In this document: positions 7,623 through 42,492 of the stretch, in pieces
Layout: the number at the start of each line of letters is the position of its first letter
How positions within the stretch are numbered: the first letter of the stretch is position 1
From: Bacteroidales bacterium
Lineage (GTDB): Bacteria; Bacteroidota; Bacteroidia; Bacteroidales; Bacteroidaceae
Assembly: GCA_012517855.1 (NCBI GenBank)
Contig: JAAYUD010000082.1
Coordinates: 30,361-94,360, forward strand
Direction: 5' to 3'
Length of the DNA stretch: 64,000 nucleotides
Notes under the pieces: generated by a model
Told to the model about the DNA's origin: nothing
Database searches by the model: none
The model's input: only the letters and a program-made list of their open reading frames with translations
Translations under genes and position numbers: made by a program

Positions 7623-8482
7623 TTAACCAAACGGGGAATCATATTGCAATTTGCGCACTCTACATTCGACATCTCTGCCACGGTGGTCAATGCGCTGCCT
7701 AAAATGCTTTTAAACGCTTCGTGATATCTTTCTAAAAGGATGAAGTCTGTGAGACATACTGACGAAAGTTGGTTCACCTCAGAGAGGTTTTATCTCTTTG
7801 TCCCGAGAAGAATGTCGTTCCACATATGTGAGTTGATCGAATCACATATGTGAGTCGATCGTTCCATATATGTGATTCGATCAACTCACATATGTGGAAC
7901 GACAAAACCTTAATGAGCCAACAGAAATACCTTAAATACGACAATCCTGATTCAATAAGATGTGTACAAAAAACCTTCTCTCAGAAAAGAGCCGGATCAC
8001 TTCCATGCACGGGCAGTGAGCAAAGAAGTCATTACCTACAAGCAATTAAAAATGAGTTGAAAGGAGTTTCGGCACGGTGCACACACCACAGATGCCGGAT
8101 GATGACTTAATCGGTTGATATACGAAGTGGGCGATCCAAGTTTCATAATACGTTATCAGTAAGCAAGATAACGTCATTTCGAGGTCCCAAAAACAAGTCA
8201 CACCTGTATATGTTATTCATAGTCAACAAGATAACATGACGGATACTTCAGCAACAATAAAAAACAACAGAACTGCCATCACCTGAATAATTCATACTTG
8301 AGCCGACATAAGAAGAAAGGTAAAAGCGATTCAAATACAATAAGTGGGTGGTAATGATGGCGTTATTGCCCCTTTATCATTGTGACAGCAATGCCTCAGC
8401 GTCCGAAATATGTTTAGAAATAGGATAAGCTTTTATTCTAATGAACTATCGGGAGCAGAAATATCATTAAAGCTATAACCTT
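7623..8482. other. 860-bp gene-free gap between ribF and comF
   Basis: No credible coding sequence was found; the longest frame (86 codons from 7850) starts inside the palindrome array and matches nothing recognised. The gap holds that array (7814-7903) and two look-alike stem-loops about 60 bp apart. The first has CGTTATC 8151-8157 pairing with GATAACG 8167-8173. The second has TGTTAT 8211-8216 pairing with ATAACA 8231-8236. The flanking genes converge here, so neither promoter of ribF nor of comF is expected in the gap. Confidence 0.6.
7814..7903. repeat. Palindrome array: four 10-bp palindromes at exact 22-bp period, folding as one 36-bp inverted repeat
   Basis: The 10-mers CACATATGTG (7821), CACATATGTG (7843), CATATATGTG (7865) and CACATATGTG (7887) start exactly 22 bp apart. 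The 12-bp spacers contain GATC-centred near-palindromes (TTGATCGAA, TCGATCG, TTCGATCAA). The whole block is also a perfect inverted repeat: 7814-7849 pairs with 7868-7903 (36 bp) around an 18-bp loop. The outermost ends are GTCGTTC and GAACGAC. It lies in the convergent gap after ribF. Its function is unknown. Confidence 0.9.
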
Positions 8483-9190
8483 TTATTGAGCAGCAACGGC
8501 CAATGTGAGTAAACTGACTTTCGCCTCTTTGAGAGTGGCAAAACTTTCGATAAAAGCCAATGCTGTTGCTCCAGTAGTGACAACATCGTCAATAACTAAA
8601 ATATGTTTGCCTTCAAGACGTTCGGGGTGCTCGAGTTGAAAGATTTGCTGAACATTCTCCCATCTTTGAAAAGGTGTTTTCCGTGTTTGCGTTTCGACGT
8701 GTTTTACACGCTTCACAGCATGCATTTCGATTGGCAAATCGGTGACATGAGAAACTCCTTTGGCAATCCACTCGCTTTGATTATATCCACGAATCCGTTG
8801 CCGTTTTGGATGAAGTACAACTGGCATCAACAAATCAATTCCATCAAAGAAATTCGATTGTTGTAGCAACTCTGCCGCCATATTTCGCCCCATAACCTCT
8901 CCTATTTCCTTTTTACCACCATATTTAATTGCGTGAATAATCTTTCGCATTTCACTACCTCGATAGTAATAAAAATAAGATGTAGCCTTGATTAGGTTTA
9001 TCCGCCCCCAGAATAGACGTTCAACAGGATTTTCGGACAATAAATGATAATTCGTACGAGGCAGATTCAGAAGACAAGAGGTACATAAAAAATCCTCACC
9101 GCGCACCAGTGGAGAATCACAGACAGTGCAACAGCGAGGAAATAAAAGGTTTATCAGCGAACTGATATACGTAAAAACTTTATTCAACAT
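8483..9190 (-). CDS. ComF-family phosphoribosyltransferase-like protein
   Basis: 235 residues. The N-terminus has a CxxC zinc-finger pair (CCTVCDSPL near residue 20 and CTSCLLN near 36). The C-terminal half is a type I phosphoribosyltransferase fold with the PRPP-binding loop ILVIDDVVTTGATA near residue 205. ComF proteins are linked to natural transformation in several bacteria and are widespread in Bacteroidetes; the substrate is not known. The ATG overlaps the typA stop codon (TAATG at 9192-9188), so translation is probably coupled to typA. Confidence 0.88.
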   Translation of the reverse strand: MLNKVFTYISSLINLLFPRCCTVCDSPLVRGEDFLCTSCLLNLPRTNYHLLSENPVERLFWGRINLIKATSYFYYYRGSEMRKIIHAIKYGGKKEIGEVMGRNMAAELLQQSNFFDGIDLLMPVVLHPKRQRIRGYNQSEWIAKGVSHVTDLPIEMHAVKRVKHVETQTRKTPFQRWENVQQIFQLEHPERLEGKHILVIDDVVTTGATALAFIESFATLKEAKVSLLTLAVAAQ

Positions 9191-10986
9191 TACCGACCCG
9201 CACGTTTGCGTTCCAATTCGTCAAGAATTATTTTACGCATTCTCATGTGCTTAGGTGTAACTTCTACATATTCGTCTTCTTTGATATATTCCAACGCTTC
9301 TTCAAGCGAAAATTGAACAGGAGGAATAAGACGAGCTTTATCGTCGGCTCCCGAAGCACGCATATTGGTTAGCTTTTTGGACTTCGTTACGTTTACGACT
9401 AAATCGTTGTCTTTATTATGCTCTCCGACAACTTGACCGCCATAAACCTCTTCTTGTGGGAAAATAAAGAAACGTCCTCTATCTTGCAACTTGTCAATAG
9501 CATAAGCGAAAGCCGTTCCGCCTTCCAAAGCAACTAATGAGCCATTGAGACGACGGTTAATTTCGCCTTTATAAGGTTGATACTCTTTATATCGATGAGC
9601 CATAACAGCCTCACCCGCAGATGCAGTAAGAACATTGGTTCGCAGTCCGATGATACCACGCGAAGGAATTTCGAATTCCAAATTAACGCGTTCTCCTTGA
9701 TTAGTCATCATCAACAAATTACCTTTACGGCGGGTTACCATATCAATAATTTTACTACTATATTCTTCGGATACATTAATGGTAAGTTCCTCTACCGGTT
9801 CGCACTTAACGCCATCGATCTCTTTGTAAATAACTTGAGGTTGACCTACTTGCAACTCGTATCCCTCACGACGCATTGTCTCGACAAGTACAGAAAGATG
9901 AAGCACACCACGTCCGGAGACGATCCATTTACCTTCCACTTCACCACTTTTTACCCTAAGAGCCAAATTCTTCTCCAATTCTTTATTCAAACGGTCTTGT
10001 ATATGCCTAGAAGTAACGAATTTTCCATCCTGACCATAAAAAGGCGAGTCGTTGATAGCAAAGAGCATACTCATTGTGGGCTCGTCAATAGTAATTGGAG
10101 GTAGCGCTTCCGGATTTTCAAAATCGCATACCGTATCACCTATCTCGAAGCCATCAATACCAACCAAAGCACAAATGTCACCCGACGAAACTTCGCTCTT
10201 ACGGGCACGTCCCATGCCTTCAAAGACATGCAGTTCTTTGATTTTAGATTTTTGTTTAGTACCGTCACGCTTAACGAGTGTAATATCCATTCCTTCGCGC
10301 AGAGTTCCACGATGGACACGTCCTACCGCAATACGACCGGTATAAGAAGAAAAATCGAGCGAAGTAATCAACATCTGAGGAGTACCTTCCAATTGTGTTG
10401 GAGCGGGTATATTCTCGAGAATACTATCCAATAATGGAATAATATTGTCGGTCGGTTTTCTCCAATCGGTATTCATCCAGCCATTCTTTGCCGAACCATA
10501 AATAGTAGGGAAATTGAGCTGATCGTCTGTAGCGCTAAGATTATACATTAACTCCCAAATCATATCGCGTACTTCCTCAGGGCGGCAGTTAGGTTTATCA
10601 ACCTTGTTGATGACAACAATCGGTTTGAGACCGATTTCGAGTGCCTTCTGCAACACAAAGCGAGTTTGCGGCATAGGCCCCTCAAAAGCATCAACCAAGA
10701 GCAAACAGCCATCTGCCATATTGAGCACACGTTCTACCTCACCCCCAAAATCGCTATGTCCTGGGGTATCTATAATATTAATCTTTACATCTTTGTAATT
10801 GATCGAAACGTTTTTGGAAAGAATCGTTATCCCTCGTTCACGCTCCAAATCATTGTTATCCAGTATCAGGGTACCCTTCTCCTGATTAGCACGGAACAAA
10901 TGGCCCGCTAACAACATCTTATCTACCAGCGTGGTTTTGCCATGATCGACATGGGCAATAATTGCAATATTTCTAATATTTTGCAT
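9190..10986 (-). CDS. typA: Ribosome-associated GTPase BipA/TypA
   Basis: 598 residues, full length for the family. The G domain shows AHVDHGKTT (residues 11-19), the switch region [15 protein letters not shown] and NKVDKP. EF-G-like domain II, domains III and V and the BipA-specific C-terminal domain follow ([12 protein letters not shown], then [13 protein letters not shown]). BipA is a translational GTPase that binds the 70S ribosome and supports 50S assembly and stress adaptation. The gene is divergent from rpsO and is followed by comF with a 1-bp overlap. Confidence 0.96.
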
Positions 10987-11004
10987 ATAAAACTAATTTG
11001 ACTG

Positions 11005-11012
11005 CAAAGTTA
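11005..11012 (-). promoter_or_regulatory. -7 box of the typA promoter
   Basis: TAACTTTG on the minus strand (11012-11005) matches TAnnTTTG, about 20 bases before the typA ATG. No good -33 TTTG is visible at the usual spacing. Confidence 0.45.
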
Positions 11013-11062
11013 CTACAAAATCAGGTAAATACTAACTTTCTCTAAAAAAAATAGCATAAAGC

Positions 11063-11093
11063 ATTGAAATATAAAAGGTAATTCATACCTTTG
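11063..11093 (+). promoter_or_regulatory. Bacteroides-type promoter for rpsO
   Basis: ATTG (11063-11066), 19 bases, then TACCTTTG (11086-11093), a full match to TAnnTTTG. Transcription would start near 11100, leaving a leader of about 37 bases before the rpsO ATG. Confidence 0.7.
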
Positions 11094-11136
11094 CACCCAC
11101 GAAAATCATTTTTTATATTAAAAAAAGCAATAAATT

Positions 11137-11406
11137 ATGTATTTAGACGCTGAAACAAAAAAAGAAATCTTCGGTAAGTACGGAAAGTCCAACACTGATA
11201 CTGGCTCATCAGAAGCTCAGATTGCTTTGTTTTCATACCGTATTACCCATCTGACTGAGCACCTAAAGCTCAACAGAAAAGATTATAGCACAGAAAGAGC
11301 ATTGACCATGTTGGTTGGCAAACGTCGTCGTTTGCTAGACTATTTGAAAGACAGAGATATCGAAAGATATCGTGCTATCGTTAAAGCTCTCGGATTGCGT
11401 AGATAA
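11137..11406 (+). CDS. rpsO: 30S ribosomal protein S15
   Basis: 89 residues, the standard S15 length. The family signature is clear: [15 protein letters not shown] near residue 22, then [13 protein letters not shown], and [12 protein letters not shown] near 64. S15 binds 16S rRNA helices 20-22 early in small-subunit assembly. The gene stands alone between typA (divergent) and sufE (convergent), with its own promoter and a strong terminator. S15 autoregulates its own mRNA in other bacteria, but I did not identify such a structure here. Confidence 0.98.
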
Positions 11407-11428
11407 TTTATCTATCAGCAAAAAAATT

Positions 11429-11466
11429 AAAGGCCGCCTCATCATAAAGATGAAAGCGGCCTTTTC
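11429..11466. terminator. Bidirectional rho-independent terminator between rpsO and sufE
   Basis: AAAGGCCGC (11429-11437) pairs with GCGGCCTTT (11456-11464), and the inner TCATC/GATGA lengthens the stem. T residues follow on the + strand, and an A-rich run precedes it, giving a U-tract for minus-strand transcripts. It can serve both converging genes. Confidence 0.85.
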
Positions 11467-11515
11467 TTATTCCAATATTTCTCCTTTAACTCACTAGCAA
11501 AAGAAGGGAAAGCCT

Positions 11516-11938
11516 TTAAATACCCTTTGTTTTATAAGCCAAAGCATACATCCGCATTTGTTTTACCATAGCAAGCAAACCGTTGCTGCGAGTCGGAGAA
11601 AGATGCTCTTTCAATCCTATCTTTTCAATAAAATAGAGATCCGCATTAAGAATCTCATCGGGTGTATGTCCCGAAAGCACTCTAATCAGGAGTGTAACAA
11701 TACCTTTTACAATCAAAGCATCACTTTCTGCGGTAAAAATAAGTTTCCCGTCTTTGACATCGCATTGAAGCCATACCCGACTTTGACATCCATCAATAAG
11801 ATTTTCTTCTGTCTTATACTTTTCGTCCAAAGATTGTTGGTCATTGCCCATATCGATAAGCATCTGGTAACGATCCATCCAATCATCAAAATCACTAAAT
11901 TCGCTGACTATTTCGTCTTGTTGTTCGTTGATTGTCAT
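11516..11938 (-). CDS. sufE: SufE-family Fe-S assembly protein
   Basis: 140 residues, the normal SufE length. The active-site cysteine lies in the motif IDGCQSRVWL near residue 50, which accepts persulfide sulfur from the SufS cysteine desulfurase. The middle part (GKLIFTAESDALIVKGIVTLLI) and the C-terminal GLKEHLSPTRSNG segment match the family. It would deliver sulfur to the Suf Fe-S scaffold in the cytoplasm. No suf operon lies nearby. It starts 17 bp after the stop codon of the M28-type gene and is probably co-transcribed with it. Confidence 0.93.
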   Translation of the reverse strand: MTINEQQDEIVSEFSDFDDWMDRYQMLIDMGNDQQSLDEKYKTEENLIDGCQSRVWLQCDVKDGKLIFTAESDALIVKGIVTLLIRVLSGHTPDEILNADLYFIEKIGLKEHLSPTRSNGLLAMVKQMRMYALAYKTKGI

Positions 11939-11955
11939 TCTATTTATTTATTTTT

Positions 11956-12936
11956 CTACTTCTCATTATAAATTACTTGCATCACCGTCTGCCCTACCGC
12001 TTTAAGTGTTGCTTTATCAATATGATCCATATTATCGGCAAGTGTATGCCACGTAGGAGTGAAACTACCATCCTTACTATATGGAATAATATCTGCTGTA
12101 GGGATATTGGCCATTTGATTGATAAAGACATGATCGTCTGTAACTTGAGAGCCTTGCTCATTAACAAAATACTGACCATAGCCAAGACTCGCAGCAGCCT
12201 TCCACAACTTACGGTTGATTGCCGAAGCATACTGTTCGGAATAAACTTCTTTGTGAAACACAGACCCCTTGCCCCCTACCATATCAAGTAGTATGCCGAA
12301 ACGTGCCGTATAGCCGTCAACATGAGGATTGCGAGCCCAATACTGAGCACCTAATGCCCACGAACTTTCATCATCTTTCTTCTCGAATTGAGGAATACCA
12401 TAATCTTCGGCGTCCAGAAAAATAATATCAATACCCATTTCGGGTTGTTGTTTCTGAATGAGACGGGCAATCTCGAGCAACACACCAACACCACTTGCAC
12501 CATCATTGGCCGCCAAGATTGGTTTATGCCAATTTGCTTTATCAGGATCATTGTCTGCCCATGGACGAGAGTCCCAATGAGAAAAGAGCGCAATACGTTT
12601 CTTACTCTCCGGTTTAAATGAACCGACGATATTGACCGATTTCAAGATCGTCCCATCGTAACCGGCAAGGTCACACTTTTGCAAAGTTACCGTAGCGCCA
12701 TAACTTTTCAATTTCGCCGAAAGATAATCGGCACAATCCTTATGTGCTTTACTGTTGGGTATACGAGGTCCGAAATCAACTTGTGCCTTTACATAATGAT
12801 AAGCACTATCGGCATTGAATACCGGGACATTGACCGATGCAACCGCAACTTCTGTCGTTTTGCTTTTCCCACCACCGCAAGATACAAATCCCACAGCGCC
12901 GAGACAGACAGAAAGGAAAAGAGTAAAATTCTTCAT
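11956..12936 (-). CDS. M28-family lipoprotein, glutaminyl-peptide cyclotransferase-like
   Basis: 326 residues. An N-terminal lipoprotein signal (MKNFTLFLSVC... with cysteine after VS) is followed by a zinc-hydrolase fold. Metal-ligand motifs are visible: LFSHWDSRPWADND near residue 120, AANDGASGVGVLLE near 145 and IIFLDAEDYG near 175. The WDSRPWAD and DAEDYG versions are typical of bacterial glutaminyl cyclases, which form pyroglutamate at the N-terminus of exported proteins; in Bacteroidetes many exported proteins begin with Gln after signal cleavage. An aminopeptidase role cannot be excluded. A -7-like TATTTTTG lies upstream (12962-12955, minus strand). Confidence 0.85.
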   Translation of the reverse strand: MKNFTLFLSVCLGAVGFVSCGGGKSKTTEVAVASVNVPVFNADSAYHYVKAQVDFGPRIPNSKAHKDCADYLSAKLKSYGATVTLQKCDLAGYDGTILKSVNIVGSFKPESKKRIALFSHWDSRPWADNDPDKANWHKPILAANDGASGVGVLLEIARLIQKQQPEMGIDIIFLDAEDYGIPQFEKKDDESSWALGAQYWARNPHVDGYTARFGILLDMVGGKGSVFHKEVYSEQYASAINRKLWKAAASLGYGQYFVNEQGSQVTDDHVFINQMANIPTADIIPYSKDGSFTPTWHTLADNMDHIDKATLKAVGQTVMQVIYNEK

Positions 12937-13023
12937 AACTTTGCTATTTTGCTACAAAAATACACATTTTACCTTTAGAAGGCATTCACAATATACAAAA
13001 TTATAACATATAATAGTAGATAA

Positions 13024-13737
13024 CTAGCTCTGTCCATCCAAAAACTTTTGGAAATTAGTTTTATAACTATCACTCACGGGAATATACGTCTTTTCGAAGA
13101 CAATGCGTCCGTGATCAATAACCCGTATCTTACTCTTTTGTACAATATACGATCGATGTACTCTGATAAACCTCGAAGCAGGCAAAAGTTGCTCCATCGC
13201 TTTCATATTCATAAGAGACAATATAGGGCGAGGAACACCTTCAATATAAATTTTCACATAATCTTTGAGACCTTCTACATAGAGTATTTTGGCAAGCTCT
13301 ATCTGAATGAGTTTATATTCGCTTTTCACAAAAATACTTTGAATTTCTTTCTCTTCACCAGGACCTTTAGGCTGTGCCATTTCAAACCATTGCAATGCTT
13401 TATTGGCGGCTTCCAGGAAATCGACATAAGATATAGGTTTGAGCAAGTAATCGAGAGCATTGACTCGATAACCATCAAGCGCATATTGTCCAAAAGCCGT
13501 TGTAAATATTACTCTAGTACGAACAGGCAACATCTTCGAGAATTCCAATCCGTTCAATTCGGGCATTTGAATATCCAGGAACAACAAATCGACTTCATTA
13601 TCCGGTAATTCTTTCATAGCCAAAATAGCATTAGCATACCTTCCTGTTAACTTCAGAAAAGGAGTCTTTTCGACATAACTTTGCAATAACCCGAGCGCCA
13701 ATGGCTCGTCGTCAACGATGGCACAACGCAGTATCAT
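13024..13737 (-). CDS. LytTR-family response regulator
   Basis: 237 residues. The N-terminal receiver domain has the acidic pair at residues 9-11 (VDDE), the phosphoacceptor Asp at 55 in LLFLDIQMPE, and the conserved Lys in LLKPISY near 103. The C-terminal LytTR DNA-binding domain begins around 140 (IFVKSEYKLIQI) and includes FIRVHRSYIV. It overlaps the 3' end of the upstream histidine kinase by 26 bp, so the two proteins are a cognate pair. The operon also encodes a MacAB-TolC-like efflux system, its likely regulatory target. Confidence 0.94.
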   Translation of the reverse strand: MILRCAIVDDEPLALGLLQSYVEKTPFLKLTGRYANAILAMKELPDNEVDLLFLDIQMPELNGLEFSKMLPVRTRVIFTTAFGQYALDGYRVNALDYLLKPISYVDFLEAANKALQWFEMAQPKGPGEEKEIQSIFVKSEYKLIQIELAKILYVEGLKDYVKIYIEGVPRPILSLMNMKAMEQLLPASRFIRVHRSYIVQKSKIRVIDHGRIVFEKTYIPVSDSYKTNFQKFLDGQS

Positions 13738-14791: not shown

Positions 14792-14867
14792 TGCAAATAT
14801 AACTAATTATTCAAAAGGATGGTTCGAACCTTCTATCTTAAATCATCCCGTCCTTTATTATTGTTAT

Positions 14868-16088: not shown

Positions 16089-16096
16089 GGCATCTA

Positions 16097-16840
16097 TTAA
16101 TTATCATCAGGAAGCGGTATGGTCGTCAGTTTGACTTTAGCATCCTGAATGTTATCATTTACTTTATCGTCTCTAATCTTCCCATCACGCAACGTAATCG
16201 TTCGACTCGAATAGAAAGCTATTTCGGGATTATGGGTGACAAAGATAATGGTTCTACCTTCGGCATGAAGCTTCTGAAAAAGCACCAAGATTTCAAAAGA
16301 TGTACGAGTATCAAGATTGCCGGTCGCTTCGTCGGCCAGAATAACAGCCGGATTATTAACCAAAGCACGAGCAATAGCCACGCGTTGCATCTGCCCGCCC
16401 GACATCTGGTTAGACTTATGATTCAAACGGTCGCCCAATCCGACAGCATCTAGTGCTTCGATAGCACGACGACGTCTTTCGGAAGCACTCACGGAGCCAT
16501 TATACATCAATGGTAATTCCACATTTTCTATCGCCGTCGTTTTGGGCAGCAAGTTATAGCTTTGAAAAACAAATCCGATCTTGCGGTTGCGAAGCACTGC
16601 TCGCTGCGGCTTAGTCATGGTGCGTACAGATATTCCATCGAGCAGATATTCTCCTTTGGTTGGAGTATCCAAGCAACCCAACAGATTGAGCAAAGTAGAT
16701 TTGCCTGAACCAGACATTCCCATGATAGTTACAAATTCTCCTTCGTTGATAGTAAATGAAACACCGCGCAAAGCATGTACTGTCTCTTCGCCAACAATGA
16801 AATTCCGGCGAATATCTTGTAATTCTATTATCGGTTTCAT
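16097..16840 (-). CDS. ABC transporter ATP-binding protein, MacB/LolD type
   Basis: 247 residues with Walker [12 protein letters not shown] (near residue 42), Q-loop [10 protein letters not shown], signature [15 protein letters not shown], Walker [13 protein letters not shown] and the switch His in FVTHNPEIA. The sequence groups with the LolD/MacB ATPases. It energises the permease encoded just downstream and lies in the order adaptor, ATPase, permease within one operon. Confidence 0.95.
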
Positions 16841-16856
16841 AATTTAATTCTCCTAC

Positions 16857-20667: not shown

Positions 20668-20672
20668 CGTTA

Positions 20673-28968: not shown

Positions 28969-30330
28969 TTATAAGTCCACTTCTTTATTATTCACTAATA
29001 AATGCGTACCATATTTATATTGATACAATGCAACCTGCAGTTTCTTCTTGTCAGAATTCATAGGAAGAATCACCACAAAATGCATATTCTTAGCGTCTTG
29101 GTCTATCACCTTATTCTTATCACGCGTCTTCTCATCTTCCCAAGTACCGGTATTGGCATAAACACAAGATTTATTTTCACTATTGGTATAAGATTTAATC
29201 ATCGGCAAATGGGTATGGCCGAAAACTACGAGACGGACAAAAGAACGAATAGGGACAAGAAAATATTGTAAGTATGATTGGTCATCAATAAAACCCGTAT
29301 GCAAGCTCCCTGATATAGCATCGTCAATATTTGTCGAAACAAGAGCATGATTATACCTTTCGCGATCATCCCAATTGGCCTGAGTAAATAAACCATCATA
29401 TAGATTCATCTCTATATGACCATCTGTTGCATTATTTCGAGGTAAAATATCATTAATAGAATAAGCCTTCGTATAATTCCCCACATTCGTAGTGATAATC
29501 TTGTCATCGAAATTATCTTTCACATAAATCAAACCTGACAACACTTGATTCCATAAATAATAGTAATTATATTTACTATTCTGCTCCTCATTATTCGGAT
29601 CATTCAGCTTTACATTGGGCACTTTTGTAGCAGCTTCTGGAGTAGTAGGATCTATAAACGAATTAGCAGCGATACGAGCAAAAAAGTAACCGGGAGGCAA
29701 TATAGAACCCGGAGCTTCAGACTCATTGGCGCCAGGAGTCATTGCACAGAAGAAATCATAGCGGTGACCATGTTCTATAGCAATCTGCGGATAGCCGTCT
29801 GGATAATAAGTACCAACTGCGAGTCTGTCTTTATCACGGGCTTGATTTACCCCAGGCATTGCAACATCAACATTTTCCGGGGAGATACCCATATCGTGGT
29901 TTCCAGGAATATAAGTAACCTTTACATTACGATCTTTAATAATACCGTTCAACACATCAAAGATACGTTGATTTGCCACTACCGTCTTTCTGACAAAATC
30001 GGTCTGAGAGCCATTCCCATAAGTATTCACTCTTGTCGGAATATACCATTCGTCGAACATATCGCCCGCTATGACGAGTTCTTTAATAGTGTTCGAAGAG
30101 CGTACCTCATTAAGGAATTGCTCCAGCCGTTTTAAGTGCTTCACATTTTCAGAGTACGCCAAATCGTTTCCCAAATGTAAATCACTAATCACAATAATTT
30201 TGTCGCGTTCTACATTGCTACTCGCACTGATAGTGTCAAATGGATTATCAGCGGAATCTTTGTCACTGTTGCACGATACCAAACCAAAAGCAGATGCAAC
30301 AAACAAAAGGATAAAACTAATTTTCTTCAT
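28969..30330 (-). CDS. Metallophosphoesterase lipoprotein
   Basis: 453 residues with a lipoprotein signal (MKKISFILLFVASAFGLVSC). Calcineurin-like phosphoesterase motifs are visible: ISDLHLGND near residue 49, AGDMFDEW near 88, IPGNHD near 142, IEHGHRYD and VFGHTHLP. These supply the two-metal ligands D-x-H, GD, GNHD, H and GHxH. The lipid anchor puts it in the periplasm or at the cell surface. The substrate is unknown. It is divergent from a membrane-bound AraC-type regulator. Confidence 0.85.
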   Translation of the reverse strand: MKKISFILLFVASAFGLVSCNSDKDSADNPFDTISASSNVERDKIIVISDLHLGNDLAYSENVKHLKRLEQFLNEVRSSNTIKELVIAGDMFDEWYIPTRVNTYGNGSQTDFVRKTVVANQRIFDVLNGIIKDRNVKVTYIPGNHDMGISPENVDVAMPGVNQARDKDRLAVGTYYPDGYPQIAIEHGHRYDFFCAMTPGANESEAPGSILPPGYFFARIAANSFIDPTTPEAATKVPNVKLNDPNNEEQNSKYNYYYLWNQVLSGLIYVKDNFDDKIITTNVGNYTKAYSINDILPRNNATDGHIEMNLYDGLFTQANWDDRERYNHALVSTNIDDAISGSLHTGFIDDQSYLQYFLVPIRSFVRLVVFGHTHLPMIKSYTNSENKSCVYANTGTWEDEKTRDKNKVIDQDAKNMHFVVILPMNSDKKKLQVALYQYKYGTHLLVNNKEVDL

Positions 30331-30421: not shown

Positions 30422-30450
30422 CAAAGGTAGTCAACATTTAGCCGACCAAA
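30422..30450 (-). promoter_or_regulatory. Probable promoter of the metallophosphoesterase gene
   Basis: Minus strand TTTG (30450-30447), 17 bases, TACCTTTG (30429-30422). The -7 box is a full match; the spacing is a little short. The predicted leader is about 85 bases. Confidence 0.5.
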
Positions 30451-30460
30451 GTCTCATATT

Positions 30461-30490
30461 TACAAAACCGACGTATCATAAATACAAAAC
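30461..30490. promoter_or_regulatory. Direct repeat TACAAAAC x2 in a divergent regulator promoter region
   Basis: TACAAAAC occurs at 30461-30468 and 30483-30490, exactly 22 bp apart, between the divergent promoters of the metallophosphoesterase and the AraC-type regulator. The spacing equals two helical turns, as expected for a direct-repeat AraC operator; this is inference. Confidence 0.35.
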
Positions 30491-30555
30491 ATTGCGATTT
30501 TAAGACAAAAAAGACGATTTGATTACCAAATTATTTGTTAAATTTGCACCTTGTT

Positions 30556-32923: not shown

Positions 32924-32964
32924 TTGGTACGTTTCCTCTTTAATATAGTTACTTTAGCAGTATG

Positions 32965-33122: not shown

Positions 33123-33150
33123 CCATCTAAATCAATACTAACAATTTGGT

Positions 33151-36224: not shown

Positions 36225-36243
36225 ATTTTACAACAGATAATTT

Positions 36244-36290
36244 AAATACCCGGCTAATACATCACTGTATAGAGTCGGGTATTTCTTTTA
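36244..36290 (+). terminator. Rho-independent terminator after lipA
   Basis: AAATACCCGGCT (36244-36255) pairs with AGTCGGGTATTT (36273-36284), a 12-bp stem with one G-U pair, followed by CTTTTA. It lies 20 bp after the lipA stop codon. Confidence 0.8.
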
Positions 36291-36309
36291 AGAGAGAGAG
36301 TTTTATTTT

Positions 36310-37047
36310 TTACTTTTTACGGGTTACTATTTTACTGCCGTCATTCAATATCACTGCATCTTGGTCATCAATATCGACGCTAAAATCTTTCAAACCTTTA
36401 CCGATCTTCTGCATTCGCATATCCATTCCTTTCATTTCTTTCTCAACATTCTTCATCTGTTCTTTGAAAGACGACCAATCATAATCCTTCAAGACTTGAA
36501 GTCCAGAGGCATCCCAATCAATATTGTTTAAGGCTTCCAATTCTTTGCCATCCCATTTAAAGGAGGATATGCTGGGTATGTCTATAAATTTTCCTCCAAA
36601 GAAGATCGACGAATCTCCGTCATTCTGAGGTATCGATTTATCTCGAGAAATAATACTTACTATAACCTGAGGCTGCGACTCTTTACCTTGTATAATCAAA
36701 TTATAGAGAAACGTCTTTTTACCTAATTTAAAACTAAGCATCGTATTTCTATAAGTATTACGTCGGTTAGTATTAACGCTCGAGGCATTTTCGCTATCCT
36801 TATCAAACGCTTGCTGCAATTGACGGGCATAGTTGCCATCTTTACTGTAGAAACTCAACGTCTTAATCATTGTATAGACCTGCTTGGTCTTAGCGTTACG
36901 CTTAACAACCGTATTAACATCCACCCCTTTGTCCTCTAGTTCTTTTACCAATCGGTCAATATTGTTTTGGGCAGCTGCGGGAACACAACTCCACACATTT
37001 ATCAGTACTACTGACAAAAAAGCCATTAATAAATGTTTCCTTTTCAT
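36310..37047 (-). CDS. Secreted protein encoded with a sigma/anti-sigma pair (DUF5024/DUF4252-like)
   Basis: 245 residues with a signal peptide ending near PAAAQ. The N-terminal half (NIDRLVKELEDKGVDVNTVV) resembles small Bacteroidetes families of unknown function (DUF5024 or DUF4252 in style); I cannot choose with certainty. A Ser/Asp-rich middle is followed by a charged C-terminal helix (LKDYDWSSFKEQMKNVEKEMKG). It lies 35 bp downstream of the anti-sigma-like gene and is probably a target or component of that envelope-stress module. The function is not known. Confidence 0.6.
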   Translation of the reverse strand: MKRKHLLMAFLSVVLINVWSCVPAAAQNNIDRLVKELEDKGVDVNTVVKRNAKTKQVYTMIKTLSFYSKDGNYARQLQQAFDKDSENASSVNTNRRNTYRNTMLSFKLGKKTFLYNLIIQGKESQPQVIVSIISRDKSIPQNDGDSSIFFGGKFIDIPSISSFKWDGKELEALNNIDWDASGLQVLKDYDWSSFKEQMKNVEKEMKGMDMRMQKIGKGLKDFSVDIDDQDAVILNDGSKIVTRKK

Positions 37048-37082
37048 TGCTGTTCGTTATTAAATATTTCACTTATCGTTTT

Positions 37083-37607
37083 CTAAATCACCGGCAGTTC
37101 GTCTTGCTGCCCCTTTTGTTTATCACAATCCGACTTCAATCCTTTTACATATTCTTCGGGAGTCATTTTCAATGTTCTATCGACCTCCCTTTCTTGCCGT
37201 TGTGCCATTTGAGTCGTCTTTTGCAATTCCGGCAATATCTGTTTTACGTCAGAAATCTTTTCTCCATTACGAATGATATAGCTACCTTCATAACACTCAT
37301 ATTCCTCCTGCATTTTTTGATAATGCTTATAAAATCCCGTTCCAACGCCACAAACCAAAACTACAGATGCCGCCACACTTATCCGAGAGATAAACCCTTG
37401 TTTCCAAAAGATACGCCGAGGCGGTAAATAGGATTCTTGCATCCCGTTGGCATACCAATCAAACATTGGTTTGTATTTCTTCAATCGCCGAGGAATATTA
37501 TCCGAGCAGAAAAACTTGTAAAGAGCTTGTTCCTCCTCATTATCGGTTTCTCCATCAAGGAACTTCCCAATCCATTCTTCTGCATTCTGTTTGTCAATAT
37601 CCATCAT
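37083..37607 (-). CDS. Putative anti-sigma factor paired with the ECF sigma upstream
   Basis: 174 residues. The cytoplasmic N-terminus (EEWIGKFLDGETDNEEEQALYKFF) matches the short sigma-binding region of Bacteroidetes anti-sigma factors. One membrane helix follows (ISVAASVVLVCGVGTGFYKHY, about residues 95-115), and the periplasmic tail has YIIRNGEKISDVKQI. It starts 6 bp after the sigma gene's stop codon. The protein at 53290-53727 has the same layout and a matching INGEKSTDV motif, so the two are paralogues. Confidence 0.75.
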   Translation of the reverse strand: MMDIDKQNAEEWIGKFLDGETDNEEEQALYKFFCSDNIPRRLKKYKPMFDWYANGMQESYLPPRRIFWKQGFISRISVAASVVLVCGVGTGFYKHYQKMQEEYECYEGSYIIRNGEKISDVKQILPELQKTTQMAQRQEREVDRTLKMTPEEYVKGLKSDCDKQKGQQDELPVI

Positions 37608-37613
37608 AGTCTC

Positions 37614-38105
37614 CTATTTATTAATACCAAAATAGTTCATCATTTTTTTTCGTGCCCGCGACAAATTTGTACGTACCGCCACTTCACTGCTGCCTATAAT
37701 ACGGGCTATCTCGGCAACTTCCAACCCATCAATATGTTTCATCCTCAGAGTAGCTTGTTGAATATCGGGAAGAGTCTTTATCATTTCCTCAATACGCCCG
37801 GCTTCCTCTTTAGTAATATAAACATCTTCGGGCGTTGTTTCATCCGTAATATTCTCTTTACTCCAATCACACATCTGATAGGTGACCTTCCTGAGCCGAT
37901 TGAAACACAAGTGCTTCGTTATAACCAAAGCCAAAGCTTCTACCAAACGGTATTCTTCCAGCTGCCGACGTATAGACCACAGTTTGATAAGCACCTCTTG
38001 AGCGACATCATCTGCATCATCACTATTATTCAAATAATGCAATGCTTGCCGATACAACTGAGGACGAATTCGTTTGGCTTCTATTTCGAAATCCTTTTGT
38101 TCCAT
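37614..38105 (-). CDS. ECF-type RNA polymerase sigma factor
   Basis: 163 residues. Region 2 includes YLNNSDDADDVAQEVLIKLW (residues ~26-45) and region 4 has LPDIQQATLRMKHIDGLEVAEIARIIGSSEVAVRTNLSRARKK with a clear helix-turn-helix. It pairs with the anti-sigma-like gene just downstream. It shares the region 4 pattern (TLRMK, NLSRARKK) with the sigma factor at 52781. A -7 box lies upstream at 38153-38146. Confidence 0.93.
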   Translation of the reverse strand: MEQKDFEIEAKRIRPQLYRQALHYLNNSDDADDVAQEVLIKLWSIRRQLEEYRLVEALALVITKHLCFNRLRKVTYQMCDWSKENITDETTPEDVYITKEEAGRIEEMIKTLPDIQQATLRMKHIDGLEVAEIARIIGSSEVAVRTNLSRARKKMMNYFGINK

Positions 38106-38145
38106 ATTCAGTAAGTAGACACAGAAAAAGCTAAAATGTTACATG

Positions 38146-38153
38146 CAAAAATA
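38146..38153 (-). promoter_or_regulatory. -7 box upstream of the ECF sigma gene
   Basis: TATTTTTG on the minus strand (38153-38146), a match to TAnnTTTG. No -33 TTTG is visible at the expected distance, so the gene may be read by another sigma as well. Confidence 0.4.
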
Positions 38154-38365
38154 GAAAATATTTGCATTGGCTCGTTTTTTAACACCTGTTATCTTTTAAA
38201 TCGATCTTATATATTATTATCAGAACCCTGATTCTGTTGCTATTTTCTTAGAAAGTTGAAACCAAAAGTTTACCCTCCACTTACTATTAATTGGCTATAT
38301 AACTTGCATTGTTCTAAACTTATCCCAAACTGAGATATGATTTTATTAAGAGCTCTCTTGTGCCC

Positions 38366-38842
38366 TCATTTTGACGCATCATCTTTGATAATCGATCTGT
38401 TATAATCTACATTTATCGTTTTTGTTAGTATTACATTAACATTCTTGCCATTATACTTTCCTGCCTCCCAACTTTGAAGCAATGCTAATGCTTTTAATCC
38501 CGATTTTTCAAATTTTGTTAGAATTTTAGTCCTTTTATTGTAAATTCTTGCTCCAATTAAATGTCCTTTGGTGTCAATAACAAACTGAACTTCAAATTTT
38601 GTTTGAACATCTTCATTCGGTTGAAAATTATAATGAAAATATTTAGCAAAATCAGTCACTAAAGCAATATCACCACCTTTGTAATTGGGCATTTGCTCAA
38701 CAAAAGTATATACATATCTTCTAGTTAAATTATCGTATTGCACAAGCTTACTTTCCTGTTGATTTTTTAGAGAAGAACAAGAGAATGCCGAAAACATGAT
38801 AATAATCAACAGATTATACTCATTTATTACCAATCGGTACAT
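38366..38842 (-). CDS. TonB C-terminal-domain lipoprotein
   Basis: About 158 residues from ATG 38842; the frame is open further upstream (to 38938), and ATG 38869 is another possible start. A hydrophobic stretch ends in the lipobox-like AFSCSS. The body is a TonB C-terminal-like fold: VQFVIDTKGHLIGARIYNK, then LLQSWEAGKYNGKNVNVILT. TonB-CTD lipoproteins of this kind are common in Bacteroidetes without a known energy-transducing role. It lies at the edge of the AT-rich island with small secreted proteins. Confidence 0.65.
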   Translation of the reverse strand: MYRLVINEYNLLIIIMFSAFSCSSLKNQQESKLVQYDNLTRRYVYTFVEQMPNYKGGDIALVTDFAKYFHYNFQPNEDVQTKFEVQFVIDTKGHLIGARIYNKRTKILTKFEKSGLKALALLQSWEAGKYNGKNVNVILTKTINVDYNRSIIKDDASK

Positions 38843-38916
38843 CGGGAGGATTAAGCCAACAGTTTTCATAATATTGTTTGTATAAATTAGCATTTTGCTA
38901 ATGGGATAAAGTTTGA

Positions 38917-39093
38917 TTATATTTTGGTCGAGAACCAAACTTCTTTTGTAAATTTATCTTCATTATAATAAAGTTTAATTGTTATATGCCTATTTGAATC
39001 TATAATAAAAGTCCATTCCATAACATCTTTATCCATACTGTTTACGGTCTGCAGCGCAAACTTTTCTTTTTGTGGTGGAAAATGGAGTATTGG
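38917..39093 (-). pseudogene. C-terminal fragment of a small protein, or a 39-aa ORF
   Basis: An open frame ends at TAA 38919-38917 and includes MDKDVMEWTFIIDSNRHITI and KLYYNEDKFTKEVWFSTKI. It has no start codon before an upstream stop except the internal ATG at 39036, which would give 39 residues. The alternating hydrophobic pattern looks like a real protein end, so this may be the remnant of a gene whose 5' part is lost. The surroundings to 39373 are AT-rich and otherwise without an ORF. Confidence 0.3.
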
Positions 39094-39373
39094 TTATCAC
39101 AAGTTTCATCAGTAAAGTTAATGAATTGTAAACGATATTGCTAATCTATTTATTCAAATATTTTTGCTTAATAAATTAAACATACACAACAAAATGACAA
39201 TTTTCTTATAATATTTTCGTTTTTATTTTCGATCAAAATCTTTGTCGATTACTTGTTATTCGTATGCAAAGCTAAAAAGAGGCCAAAAGAATCCGAAACA
39301 GTTTCTAAATCAAATACATAAATTTTACTCATGAAATATACCCCTTTCAAATCAGTATCATGAATGTCCTTAT

Positions 39374-39886
39374 TTAACGAACACTAATATTCTTGTATAT
39401 CAAACAATTTGATACTATATCATCATGAAAATAATTTTTAAAGACAGATTCAATATCTACTTCTTTTAAGCGGATTTCTAATAAAACACGATATAAATTA
39501 TTGACTTTTAAATAAGGTGAAAAGTTTTTCTTCAATAGTTTTATGCTAATTACTTTCTTTCCCATCGGAGGTAATATTACACAGTTCTTGTAATTCAATT
39601 TAATAGGTTTTAAATCAGCAATCCAATTACAAGGGAAATAAATATGTATGGTAGAGTCTTTACTTGAAATGAATTTAATTGTAAATATATTCCTACAAAT
39701 ATCTAAATAGTTTGGAACATATACAGCCATATCTTTATCAGATTGGTTACAAAGCTCAAATTTTATTTTAATCTCGTTTTTAATTGAACGAACATATAAA
39801 AAATTAAAAGATAATAGATTCTCTTGGGATTCTATCTTTAAAATAAATAAGAATAATAGCCCTATTATAATGAGTACTTTTTTCAT
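39374..39886 (-). CDS. Small secreted protein, paralogue of the next gene upstream
   Basis: 170 residues with a signal peptide (MKKVLIIIGLLFLFILKIES). The body is beta-rich, including CNQSDKDMAVYVPNYLDIC, then HIYFPCNW, then LPPMGKKVISIKLLKK. It aligns along its length with the protein at 39933-40439: both have a YVPN/YIPK, a DIC and a FYPC/YFPC motif and a similar basic segment. The two are tandem paralogues 46 bp apart. The function is unknown; as neighbours of a broken RHS gene they might be immunity-type proteins, which is inference only. Confidence 0.65.
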   Translation of the reverse strand: MKKVLIIIGLLFLFILKIESQENLLSFNFLYVRSIKNEIKIKFELCNQSDKDMAVYVPNYLDICRNIFTIKFISSKDSTIHIYFPCNWIADLKPIKLNYKNCVILPPMGKKVISIKLLKKNFSPYLKVNNLYRVLLEIRLKEVDIESVFKNYFHDDIVSNCLIYKNISVR

Positions 39887-39932
39887 ACGTTTTTTAATTT
39901 ATTGCCTATTCCATTCGAACAAATGATATGTT

Positions 39933-40439
39933 CTATTTATTTCGGAAGTCAATTTTATTTGAGCTAACATCTTCTTGAAGCAGATTTTTTAAATTAGTTT
40001 TAAAACAGACTCCTTTCAAATACCATTCCACAAAAAGTTTATAACTCTTCCCTCTTTTTAAGTGCGAATAAATATGTTTCTTATGTAATTTAAATTTCTG
40101 AATAGACGTTTCATTCGGTTTTAAAAACAAGGTGTTATGACAATCGAGAGTAATGCAGTCTAAATCAGCGGCATTAAAAGTACATGGATAAAATTCATGT
40201 ACCTTATCATTCTGCATATCAACAATAGTTATCTTTATAAGTCCGTAACAAATATCATCTTGCTTCGGTATGTAAGTTACAATTGGCTGATTCGATATAT
40301 TCTTAATTGCAAGACTAAAACTTATGTTAGTCTCCGTTGAGATGCAATCAATAATCTCAAGCTTGATTCTTTTTTCTTGCCCAAAGAGAGTAGAATTGAG
40401 AACCACTAATAATCCTAATATTGCCATGTATTTTTTCAT
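39933..40439 (-). CDS. Small secreted protein, tandem paralogue
   Basis: 168 residues with a signal peptide (MKKYMAILGLLVVLNSTLFGQ). Shared motifs with the downstream protein at 39374 are YIPKQDDICYGLIKITI, then EFYPCTFNAADLDCITLD, then LFLKPNETSIQKFKLHKKH. The conserved Cys pair (DIC, FYPC) may form a disulfide in the periplasm. No known family is recognised. Nothing like it is seen elsewhere in the window. Confidence 0.65.
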   Translation of the reverse strand: MKKYMAILGLLVVLNSTLFGQEKRIKLEIIDCISTETNISFSLAIKNISNQPIVTYIPKQDDICYGLIKITIVDMQNDKVHEFYPCTFNAADLDCITLDCHNTLFLKPNETSIQKFKLHKKHIYSHLKRGKSYKLFVEWYLKGVCFKTNLKNLLQEDVSSNKIDFRNK

Positions 40440-40625
40440 AATGTCGATTTTTAGTAATTAAATATTGGTTGTAGAGTGAGAAGTGCCCGAGTTTGGAATG
40501 TTGGAGTTGCGACTGGCAGGATAGATTGAGGTTGAATTGATTGCCAATAAACATTTACATCGGTTTTGAGACTACTGGAAAAACTGATCAGCACGCCTAT
40601 TCCTTTACAAAATCCTATTTTAATA

Positions 40626-41198
40626 TTACATATCACTTTCTTTTTCTACAAATTCTTTTATATTAAAGTCTCCACTATCAGACACAATCAAATTAAACCA
40701 ATAACAGATATCCGTCTCTGGCATACAAATATTAATAGAAAATTTAATATATGATGTCGTTACATCTGTCATCTTAAAATTGGATATACAATATTTAGAT
40801 ATTTCATTTTTAGGTATAAACGCCCTAAAATCATCTATTTGAATTCTTTTGTTAATAAATCTCTTTTGACCATCTTTAGCTACATCTAAGACAACGTCTT
40901 GACATGCATAATAAATCGTATCATTTCCTTTCCCATCGGTAATTGGATGTGTTATAATCATCTTTCCATTCTCCTGTGACTTATATTGAATATGATAATT
41001 TCCTACAATGGAATCTACGCTAAACAAATCATAATGGATCACTTTATGTTTGCTTTTGATATTTTTGTCTTTCTTAAGTACATTTAGACTCACAGAATCA
41101 GCAGTTTTTCTTTCGGTGACTTTATTTTGACGTATATTGCAGGATGTCTCCATTAAACCTACAATAAAAATCCAAAAGAATAAATGTTTTCTATTCAT
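40626..41198 (-). CDS. Lipoprotein of unknown function (DUF4738-like style)
   Basis: 190 residues with a lipoprotein signal (MNRKHLFFWIFIVGLMETSC). The body has a repeated beta pattern: GNYHIQYKSQENGKMIITHP, then YYACQDVVLDVAKDGQKRFI. This style resembles the Bacteroidetes DUF4738 lipoproteins, but I am not certain. It starts 3 bp after the stop of a 39-residue secreted ORF and is probably translated from the same message. Confidence 0.6.
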   Translation of the reverse strand: MNRKHLFFWIFIVGLMETSCNIRQNKVTERKTADSVSLNVLKKDKNIKSKHKVIHYDLFSVDSIVGNYHIQYKSQENGKMIITHPITDGKGNDTIYYACQDVVLDVAKDGQKRFINKRIQIDDFRAFIPKNEISKYCISNFKMTDVTTSYIKFSINICMPETDICYWFNLIVSDSGDFNIKEFVEKESDM

Positions 41199-41201
41199 AA
41201 T

Positions 41202-41321
41202 TTAAAAGTTGGTTGGTTTAATTTCAGGTACTTTCCCACTATTATAAAACTCACCATAAACAACTTGTTGTACCCAAGAAACGACAAGGAATAAAAGCAT
41301 ATATATTAAATTTCGTTTCAT
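41202..41321 (-). CDS. 39-residue secreted/membrane ORF
   Basis: ATG 41321-41319 to TAA 41204-41202. The N-terminus is a signal-like segment (MKRNLIYMLLFLVVSWVQQ), followed by a short tail ending KPTNF. It begins 33 bp after the stop of the RHS remnant and ends 3 bp before the lipoprotein at 41198, so the spacing suits an operon. The size makes it easy to overlook. It may be a truncated leftover, since only 20 residues would remain after signal cleavage. Confidence 0.5.
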   Translation of the reverse strand: MKRNLIYMLLFLVVSWVQQVVYGEFYNSGKVPEIKPTNF

Positions 41322-41354
41322 CTCTTGTAAATTATAGTAAGTAAGGTTTTTAAA

Positions 41355-41695
41355 TCAAAAACTGGCAGGAAGATTTCTAATAGCTGCATTTCCAGGGAAC
41401 GCCCTTATAAAATCAGCCTTTGTTGAATTTATATTGAGTCCCCCTTCCCCTATATTGGCAAAACCACCTGGTGCATAAGGTTGTGCTCCTGTGATGTAGT
41501 AATACCCTGTACCCATGCTTGTGTAATGCCACCAAAAGAATTTGCTATTGCCAACGTCATCGGCAAATTTAATAAATTATAAGCAATATCGCTAATTCCT
41601 GTGTTCAAATATTTTATTATATGTCCATTGACGCCATCATAGTATTCCACTGGGAGTAAGTCCGCTCCCGAAATCAAGGGCTCAATATATTCCAT
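41355..41695 (-). pseudogene. Remnant of an RHS-repeat (polymorphic toxin) protein, frameshifted
   Basis: The first frame, from ATG 41695, contains EYYDGVNGHIIKYLNTGISD followed by IAYNLLNLPMTLAIANSFGG, a pattern of Bacteroidetes RHS proteins (NGNxxKDxNKGIxxIxYNxLNLP). It stops at 41454-41452. A second frame overlapping it continues with SMGTGYYYITGAQPYAPGG and FIRAFPGNAAIRNLPASF to the stop at 41357-41355. The large RHS core and any N-terminal secretion region are missing. The gene is therefore a truncated, frameshifted end of a toxin-type protein. Small secreted genes follow it on the same strand. Confidence 0.6.
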
Positions 41696-41700
41696 AAGAA

Positions 41701-41742
41701 AAAATGAAGCCGTTCTTAGAGTAACAGAGCGGCTTCATTTTT
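41701..41742. terminator. Strong symmetric hairpin, bidirectional terminator-like
   Basis: AAAATGAAGCCG (41701-41712) pairs with CGGCTTCATTTT (41730-41741), with TCT/AGA lengthening the inner stem. T runs follow on the + strand and A residues precede. It sits 6 bp before the start of the RHS remnant. Confidence 0.75.
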
Positions 41743-42241
41743 ATATATTTTAAAGAGAACAATCGCATCAAACAAAGAATTGAAGTTCTTTGAGGTAATC
41801 CTCCGAACGGCGATTAGGATAATAGGGAGAGTCCAATCTTTATACTTTACAAATAGCAGACATACAAAAGGAAGAATCAGGACTAAAAATGACCAAGGAT
41901 GCATATTTCAAAAGATTTATCATTACACCTTTGCCACCTCCGTATGACACCATTACGCACTATCACACAACAGGTTAACGATGCACCGTATACAACGCCA
42001 GCGAAAAGGGGTCCAAAAATCGGCCCAAGAGCATATTATGGGCACCTTATTTTCGGCGGACCTCTGCTTAGAACGATTCTAAATGATAGCCTACAGATAG
42101 CTGATAAGCAGTTTATGCCAAACGAGTAGCTACACTTTTTTTGATAAGTACCCTATTACCAGTGAAAGGCGACGGACAAACAGATATAAAAACTTCTTAA
42201 CAATAGTCTTTACATTTACCTCCGCCTAAATCGATGTTTTT

Positions 42242-42391
42242 TCAAACTCCTTGCATACTTTTTAGAACTTCGTCGTTGTCACTTTCAATATTTGCCCAAT
42301 GATATAGCCTCCACTTTTCTTTCGAAACGGGCGTATGATAACGGCTGTAATTGATTGTTCCCATAAGTTGTTCACATAATGAGACGTTCAT
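42242..42391 (-). CDS. 49-residue hypothetical ORF
   Basis: ATG 42391 to TGA 42244-42242. The product contains MGTINYSRYHTPVSKEKWRL and SDNDEVLKSMQGV. Composition looks protein-like, but no family is recognised and it may be a gene fragment. It starts 13 bp beside the palindrome array at 42405. Confidence 0.25.
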   Translation of the reverse strand: MNVSLCEQLMGTINYSRYHTPVSKEKWRLYHWANIESDNDEVLKSMQGV

Positions 42392-42404
42392 AATTAAGAT
42401 TCGT

Positions 42405-42492
42405 AAGTATCACACGTGTGAGACATCTGTATCACACACGTGAGACACTTGTCGCACAGCTGTGAGACGTACGTCGCACACGTGTGATACTT
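42405..42492. repeat. Second palindrome array: four 10-mers at exact 22-bp period
   Basis: CACACGTGTG (42411), CACACACGTG (42433), CACAGCTGTG (42455) and CACACGTGTG (42477) start exactly 22 bp apart. Between them sit 10-mers of the form GACA-NN-TGTC (GACATCTGTA, GACACTTGTC, GACGTACGTC), each separated by one base, so the true rhythm is 11 bp. The outer flanks AAGTAT (42405) and ATACTT (42487) extend the end palindromes into 16-bp perfect inverted arms. It lies about 100 bp downstream of the rluA-family stop codon. Confidence 0.9.

What the first reader, a model, noticed from the sequence alone, without database searches (positions are those of the whole stretch)
7814..42492. The two arrays share architecture rather than sequence: CACA-NN-TGTG with a varying, mostly self-complementary centre
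Both arrays have exactly four palindromes, three 12-bp spacers and a 22-bp period. The centres are TA, CG and GC (one degenerate), so the bases changed while self-complementarity was kept. That is the signature of selection on dyad symmetry or on paired RNA or cruciform structure. Spacers differ entirely (GATC-type against GACA-NN-TGTC type). The combination looks like an undescribed family of phased palindromic elements in intergenic space.
Basis: partly seen in the sequence, partly recalled or inferred. Interest (0 to 1): 0.78.

Follow-up and report, generated by a model that had tools for sequence, protein, structure and literature searches.

The report
Orphaned address arrays of HU genes
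The two repeat arrays are the front ends of two broken copies of genes for HU-type DNA-binding proteins; most genes of this family that we examined in related bacteria carry their own differently spelled, 22-bp-phased palindromic array in the same place, which is likely the private site where each protein would bind and regulate itself.

Summary
Observation confirmed: the window has two strong 22-bp-phased arrays of four palindromes. They are not free-standing. Both sit at the 5' end of a decayed, internally deleted copy of an HU-HIG gene (PF18291, HU domain plus winged helix): window 7740-8243 (+) matches this genome's C44 copy, window 42496-41927 (-) its C66 copy. The architecture is general: 39 of 46 full-length HU-HIG genes have a lag-22 array within 330 bp upstream (32 of 38 without those found through the arrays), against 5 of 98 other ORFs, three of which share an HU gene's array; the palindrome differs from gene to gene. 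Four units dominate. Centres are self-complementary within units (152 of 248), not between hairpin partners, so the main signal is local dyads; only the outermost 6-mers covary. In Bacteroides sp. 214 an integrase-core insertion element lies 2-3, 24-25 or 44-46 bp from such arrays (11 of 14 ends), as if a 22-bp protein lattice were there. Best reading: private operator arrays of HU-HIG proteins, orphaned when gene copies decay. Binding and autoregulation are inferred. The searched papers held no description.

The parts
7815..7902 (+). Array 1: four 22-bp units (CACATATGTG dialect)
7637..8246 (+). Type-1 unit: broken HU-HIG gene copy with its leader array; at least 30 related loci in the genome, many alignments to the window copy ending near 7637 and 8243-8246
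7793..7800 (+). Remnant of the -7 promoter box (TCTCTTTG; TATCTTTG in the C44 copy), 33 bp before the first dyad centre
   Evidence: sequence; spacing as
7917..8051 (+). HU-HIG N-terminal remnant with a premature stop (46 aa, 70% identical to the C44 reading frame, E 1e-13)
8063..8243 (+). 3' region that follows directly on the HU-HIG match in the C44 copy; about 480 bp of the gene are missing before it
42405..42492 (-). Array 2: four 22-bp units (CACA-NN-TGTG alternating with GACA-NN-TGTC-like dyads)
42163..42364 (-). HU-HIG N-terminal remnant, frameshifted (pieces of 22 aa, 64%, and 44 aa, 43%, E 7e-10)
41927..42103 (-). 3' module (last 18 nt of the HU gene plus 159 nt downstream in the C66 copy); 98 first-look candidates in the genome, 40 of them scored

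Best explanation
The two arrays are the 5' leader arrays of two decayed, internally deleted copies of HU-HIG DNA-binding protein genes, and each intact gene's 22-bp-phased array is likely the private operator to which its own HU-HIG protein would bind as a row of dimers. Shown: most HU-HIG genes examined carry such an array just upstream, the palindrome is gene-specific, a -7 box stands 32-34 bp before the first dyad centre in 7 of 8 HU-linked CACANNTGTG arrays, and in these genomes the loose arrays have the spelling of the array beside the HU gene (by eye). Inferred: the dimers would stack along one face at two helical turns per site, next to the transcription start, and shut down their own promoter; private spelling would keep the many paralogues from cross-regulating each other. 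When gene copies multiply and decay, the array outlives the gene and stays as an orphan site that the surviving protein could still occupy.
For: Window elements align to this genome's HU-HIG copies on both sides of an internal deletion. 39 of 46 full-length HU-HIG genes reach 34 of 66 at lag 22 within 330 bp upstream, 40 of 46 within 420 bp; other ORFs 5 of 98 and 8 of 93, part of which share an HU gene's or the window's array. Without the 8 genes found through CACANNTGTG arrays: 32 of 38, and 22 is the single best lag in 26 of 33. All 5 records fetched afterwards (of 17 that matched; B. finegoldii twice, P. distasonis, Bacteroides sp. CACC 737, one phage-collection contig) have best lag 22. 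TAnnTTTG 32-34 bp before the first dyad centre: 7 of 8 HU-linked arrays, 0 of the other 69. Dyads are local. HU fold plus winged helix. Units decay less than flanks: type 1, 6.8% mismatch to consensus against 15.7% and 17.9%. IS spacing beside arrays is quantised (Rayleigh R 0.971 at 22 bp).
Against: No binding, footprint or expression data. Six of 46 full-length genes had no array within 420 bp. Short HU-HIG genes were mixed (best lag 22 in 4 of 11, 23 in 3 of 11), so which domain reads the array is unknown. Only 20 of 40 arrays have an exact TAnnTTTG 5-35 nt before the array stretch. Outer-end covariation is not expected of fully independent sites. Some HU genes are near-identical between genomes (L230, L236, L237), so counts are not fully independent. 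Unit conservation in type 1 could be gene conversion. 8 of 14 type-2 and 4 of 20 type-1 loci gave no recognisable HU remnant. IS spacing fits 21 bp (R 0.984) slightly better than 22, 10.5 bp also well (0.937), and comes from one genome.
Confidence: 0.62

Rival explanations
1. Array plus HU-HIG gene plus 3' module is a mobile unit; arrays and 3' modules are its cis-acting ends and loose copies are non-autonomous (MITE-like) derivatives moved in trans.
For: In G000 and in G054 deleted copies keep both ends and lose the gene's middle. In G000 copies share deletion junctions (about 416|753: L122, L130, L131, L135, L066, L082; about 231|751: L127, L133, L136), so deleted forms multiplied. Shared alignment ends; terminal-repeat-like CAGAGTTTTTTTGC in G054, read by eye.
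Against: No transposase gene in the unit as read here; no Y1 transposase in G000 or G054. No empty site or target duplication could be shown: no near relative in the samples. It does not explain the place of the array in intact HU leaders.
Confidence: 0.3
2. The array works as a long RNA hairpin in the HU mRNA leader (attenuator or protein-binding RNA).
For: Array 1 folds as RNA at -68.5 kcal/mol (z -13.45), array 2 at -44.6 (z -5.16); arrays lie just downstream of a -7 box where one is found; outermost 6-mers covary.
Against: Centres are self-complementary within units, where a 2-nt loop cannot form, and much less between hairpin partners; no hairpin-specific excess in HU-linked arrays; no Rfam match at gathering score.
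Confidence: 0.12
3. REP/BIME-like selfish palindromes, bound by abundant nucleoid proteins and hit by insertion elements.
For: Many dispersed palindromes; an integrase-core insertion element lies beside them in one genome, as IS elements are reported to do at REPs (PMC1525189, title and start of abstract in the listing).
Against: No Y1 (RAYT-type) transposase in G000 or G054; anchored to HU-HIG leaders; four-unit 22-bp geometry.
Confidence: 0.08
4. Iteron-like replication origin of a satellite element, with a VapE-like helicase and an HU-HIG initiator on either side.
For: A divergent VapE-like gene (PF05272 plus DUF3874) flanks the array in several CACANNTGTG loci; a divergent DUF3874 gene stands by an HU gene in B. 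finegoldii.
Against: VapE found beside only 2 of 47 HU loci scanned (flanks of at most 1.5 kb, E 1e-8); many HU genes keep arrays without it.
Confidence: 0.06

Closest known systems
HU-HIG clade of HU/IHF proteins (PF18291; Burroughs et al. 2017, recalled, paper not held)
   Same: The linked proteins match PF18291 and carry a winged helix; recalled as strongly expanded in Bacteroidetes
   Different: I recall no description there of a private phased array in each leader, nor of orphan arrays; could not be checked
Large inverted repeats at hupA of E. coli and upstream of the P. gingivalis capsule operon, bound by HU PG0121 (PMC3969353; outline, abstract and passages seen)
   Same: A large inverted repeat near a promoter and an HU protein that binds it better than an unrelated 77-mer
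   Different: No four-unit 22-bp lattice is described in the passages seen; PG0121 is a ~10 kDa HU. 2 x 77 bp equals 7 x 22 bp, but I did not have that sequence
REP/BIME elements, RAYTs and REP-targeting IS (PMC1525189, PMC2817692, PMC3116915; listing and start of abstract only)
   Same: Dispersed palindromes, protein sites, IS landing places
   Different: No RAYT found; anchored to a protein gene; spelling differs with each HU gene
MetJ/Arc-type tandem palindromic operators (recalled)
   Same: Rows of short dyads that bind several dimers cooperatively next to the repressor's own promoter
   Different: Unrelated protein fold; one operator consensus rather than a private one per paralogue

Membership tests
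HU-HIG gene units (files the window elements as decayed members) | HU-HIG coding sequence next to the array | tested here: met
   tblastn remnants in both window elements, E 1e-13 and 7e-10; intact relatives match PF18291
HU-HIG gene units (files the window elements as decayed members) | 22-bp-phased array in the leader | tested here: met
   39 of 46 full-length genes against 5 of 98 other ORFs; short HU-HIG genes 4 of 11
Autoregulatory operator array | The protein binds the array and represses its own gene | not testable with these tools
   only geometry, dyad symmetry and IS spacing point to it
REP/BIME with RAYT | Y1 (RAYT-type) transposase in the genome | tested here: not met
   PF01797: none in G000 or G054; 5 of 14 control genomes ring
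Mobile element (MITE/transposon) | Precise ends with target duplication or an empty site | tested here: inconclusive
   shared alignment ends and deletion junctions but no near relative for an empty site
Known RNA family | Rfam match at gathering score | tested here: not met
   none in the window; 20 sub-threshold look-alikes, mostly microRNA hairpins, in 7000-9000
Known anti-phage defence system | PADLOC model match of HU-HIG or VapE protein | tested here: not met
   no match for four proteins at E 0.001

The most novel reading that the evidence does not exclude
HU-HIG proteins form a barcoded chromatin system of Bacteroidales: each paralogue owns a privately spelled four-site array, nucleates a 22-bp nucleoprotein lattice there, and its array multiplies with gene copies into dozens of genomic addresses that persist after the gene is gone and that insertion elements read as docking marks.
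Probability: 0.3. Interest if true: 0.9.

Novelty: new variant of a known kind. Interest (0 to 1): 0.74.

Why it matters
If true, a large and little-understood protein family of gut-type bacteria gains predicted DNA target sites that can be read straight from the leader of each gene. This makes paralogue specificity testable: the nine genomes scanned hold 6 to 21 HU-HIG matches each, many with their own natural test sequence. It would also explain a class of repeated intergenic palindromes at which assemblies break, and offer insertion-element spacing as a natural footprint of protein-bound DNA.

Tried and rejected
RAYT/REP: rejected for lack of a Y1 transposase. RNA family: nothing at gathering score in Rfam. 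Long-hairpin selection: tested twice and not supported inside the array, supported only at the outermost 6 nt. Empty sites: none possible; G000 is the only genome of its genus in the samples and no relative of G054 matched across that locus. Z-DNA reading: the winged helix resembles Zalpha domains (4lb5 by profile, 4kmf by fold) and some units alternate purine and pyrimidine, but many dialects do not, and a phmmer search with the C-terminal part alone found nothing; left as a lead. VapE as an obligatory partner: not general. Defence system: no PADLOC match. Other recurrent neighbours (a 14-member cluster in 7 genomes, a 7-member cluster in 6, an ECF-sigma cluster in 5 and a FecR cluster in 4 genomes) were not pursued: they are not at a fixed place beside the array. 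Literature: searches listed no description of these arrays; the only listed paper with the string HU-HIG names it in a gene table; most subscription papers are not held.

Mended on checking: a first count of intact units in Bacteroides sp. 214 (0 of 288) left out array L192, which has one mismatch, and used arrays found by an exact pattern; arrays found through the insertion element instead show 4 mismatches of 352. Flank divergence was against one copy; one search gives it against the consensus.

Rows dropped before counts: 26 loci of a direct-repeat class chosen by eye and 6 duplicate loci; arrays under three units are not counted there; L231 (short upstream); 8 of 36 HU arrays below score 17 or cut short; L029. 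L223's record title was not printed; I assigned it to Parabacteroides sp. RGIG9024 by its flanks.
Full report
Observation. The window holds two arrays of four palindromes at 22-bp period with 12-bp spacers. Six exact CACANNTGTG stand against 0.57 expected, and the two arrays are the only places in the window with a lag-22 self-match of 38 or more of 66. Array 1 is also a 92-bp inverted repeat as a whole. The spacers are largely dyads too, so the lattice is an 11-bp half-site in alternating orientation (sequence).

Distribution. In the own genome (G000, 3.64 Mb) the two-unit pattern with up to three mismatches gives 146 matches per strand against 3 for the reversed control. In the same family 15 of 121 genomes match with at most one mismatch: G000 118, G054 24, the rest one to three; the reversed control gives one match in two genomes. 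A scan of GTDB genomes for three exact units gave 81 stretches; of the 80 rows printed, 78 are Bacteroidales by title and two are not (Acidimicrobium, Natronomonas). Spacers form a dialect in each genome, seen by eye. One viral-collection contig carries an array.

The linked genes. Clustering ORFs around the arrays of many genomes found a ~200-aa protein beside an array in 7 genomes and a ~400-480-aa protein on the other side in 6, one of them the viral contig, where the frame is cut short. Other clusters recurred as well, but not at a fixed place. The two are HU-HIG proteins (PF18291, HU domain plus a C-terminal winged helix) and VapE-like ATPases (PF05272 plus DUF3874). In five loci the array lies between the two, divergent genes (in L182 it reaches the VapE frame).

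What the window elements are. The intact copy at C66 (locus L132) matches the window at 42496-42164 (array plus 5' part of the HU gene, 74%) and at 42103-41927 (gene end plus downstream, 86%), with the middle missing. The copy at C44 (L252) matches at 7740-7830 (90%), 7887-8059 (84%) and 8063-8243 (75%), with about 480 bp of the gene missing. Protein remnants are found in both, with a stop or a frameshift. So both arrays are orphans of broken HU-HIG genes. In C44 itself the array is a single unit. Among 34 other array loci of the genome, 16 of 20 type-1 and 6 of 14 type-2 loci show a protein remnant.

The rule. Of 41 HU-HIG genes with enough upstream sequence, 22 is the best self-match lag in 33 (two more 21, one 23); in 541 random pieces of the same loci 22 is not among the twelve commonest best lags. 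Eight of the 41 were found through CACANNTGTG arrays; among the other 33 it is 26. With five later records added, 39 of 46 genes reach 34 of 66 within 330 bp and 40 of 46 within 420 bp; without the eight it is 32 of 38. Other ORFs of at least 150 aa in the same loci and the window reach it in 5 of 98 (330 bp) and 8 of 93 (420 bp). Of the five, three lie divergent to an HU gene and share its array, and two are one spot in the window (30433-30523); the three added at 420 bp are another divergent neighbour, one ORF downstream of an HU gene, and one ORF beyond array 2 of the window. All five records fetched afterwards, of 17 that matched, have best lag 22. Eleven short HU-HIG genes gave best lag 22 in four and 23 in three. 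The palindromes differ: CACANNTGTG, CCCACCTAGGTGGG, GACACTCTAGTGTC, CTCACCATGGTGGG, CCACTGGAGTGG and others. A TAnnTTTG box starts 32-34 bp before the first dyad centre in 7 of 8 HU-linked CACANNTGTG arrays and in none of the other 69; over all 40 HU arrays an exact box stands 5-35 nt before the array stretch in 20. In array 1 of the window a one-mismatch remnant of the box stands at 33 bp (7793-7800). That TAnnTTTG is the Bacteroidetes -7 box is recalled.

Local dyads or hairpin. In 62 four-unit arrays (16 genome groups, so not independent) centres are self-complementary in 152 of 248 units; between hairpin partners they match in 24 of 62 (units 1 and 4) and 13 of 62 (units 2 and 3). In 28 HU-linked arrays mirrored complementarity is about the same for all unit pairs. 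The outermost 6-mers are the exception: 0.81 against 0.51-0.65 for other pairs, and 0.817 against 0.686 for partners from the same genome; at 7-12 and 13-18 nt the own partner is no better (0.464 against 0.527, 0.330 against 0.404). In the HU-linked set the outer excess is weak (0.70 against 0.51-0.67). This favours dimer sites in double-stranded DNA, with some added two-fold symmetry of the whole array.

Signs of occupancy. Type-1 units differ from CACATATGTG at 57 of 840 positions (6.8%), while the flanks differ from their consensus at 15.7% and 17.9%. Arrays of Bacteroides sp. 214 found through the insertion element have 4 mismatches of 352 CACA/TGTG positions. In that genome 14 ends of one insertion element were found, with the same sequence running inward, so they look like the same end of many copies. 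Eleven lie 2, 3, 3, 24, 24, 24, 24, 25, 44, 45 and 46 bp from a CACANNTGTG array; the other three, with a one-base variant of the end, lie beside an array of another spelling, seen by eye. Rayleigh R is 0.971 at 22 bp, 0.984 at 21 and 0.937 at 10.5. The element has an integrase core (PF13683); calling it IS3-like is my reading of its ORFs.

Multiplication. Deleted copies in G000 share junctions, so they multiplied after deletion. The same form, array plus 3' module without the gene's middle, is found in G054 without sequence similarity of the flanks to G000; there the module holds a 42-bp perfect palindrome in most copies and ends sharply. Whether this is transposition or another kind of duplication is open.

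Protein. The AlphaFold2 model of the Bacteroides sp. 214 protein (11 sequences, mean pLDDT 85.5, pTM 0.54) shows an HU-like domain and a winged helix; Foldseek finds HU proteins, BVU_2165 of Bacteroides vulgatus and, lower down, a Zalpha domain.

Conclusion. Shown: identity of the window elements, the leader-array rule in the genes examined, gene-specific spelling, local dyads, IS spacing in one genome. Inferred: binding by the adjacent protein, stacking of four dimers, autorepression, and use of orphan arrays by surviving proteins.

Noticed in passing
window 30433-30523: Weaker 22-bp self-match (36 of 66) between divergent ORFs that start at 30330 (-) and 30535 (+).
   Followed up: no
window 42386-42397 and 42512-42523: 12-bp inverted repeat (92%) just outside array 2, terminal-repeat-like; not seen by eye in the other copies printed.
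   Followed up: partly
L162, L172, L173, L199, L204, L211 and similar: A second class: 3 to 12 direct units CACANNTGTG, many with tagccggcta-like spacers, in Tannerellaceae, Prevotella and other records; it may be something else.
   Followed up: no
L145, L157, L171, L178, L184, L191, L192, L198, L214, L315-L328: An integrase-core insertion element in Bacteroides sp. 214 lies at 22-bp-quantised distances from the arrays.
   Followed up: yes
P. gingivalis capsule locus (PMC3969353): A published 77-bp inverted repeat bound by HU PG0121; 2 x 77 equals 7 x 22, so it might be a phased array. Sequence not examined.
   Followed up: no
L109-L116 (G054): A 42-bp palindrome in the 3' module of the HU-HIG units, identical in several copies.
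   Followed up: partly
G000 contig ends C41, C71, C109, C110, C114: Assembly breaks lie at or next to type-1 arrays, so array copy numbers here may be lower bounds.
   Followed up: no
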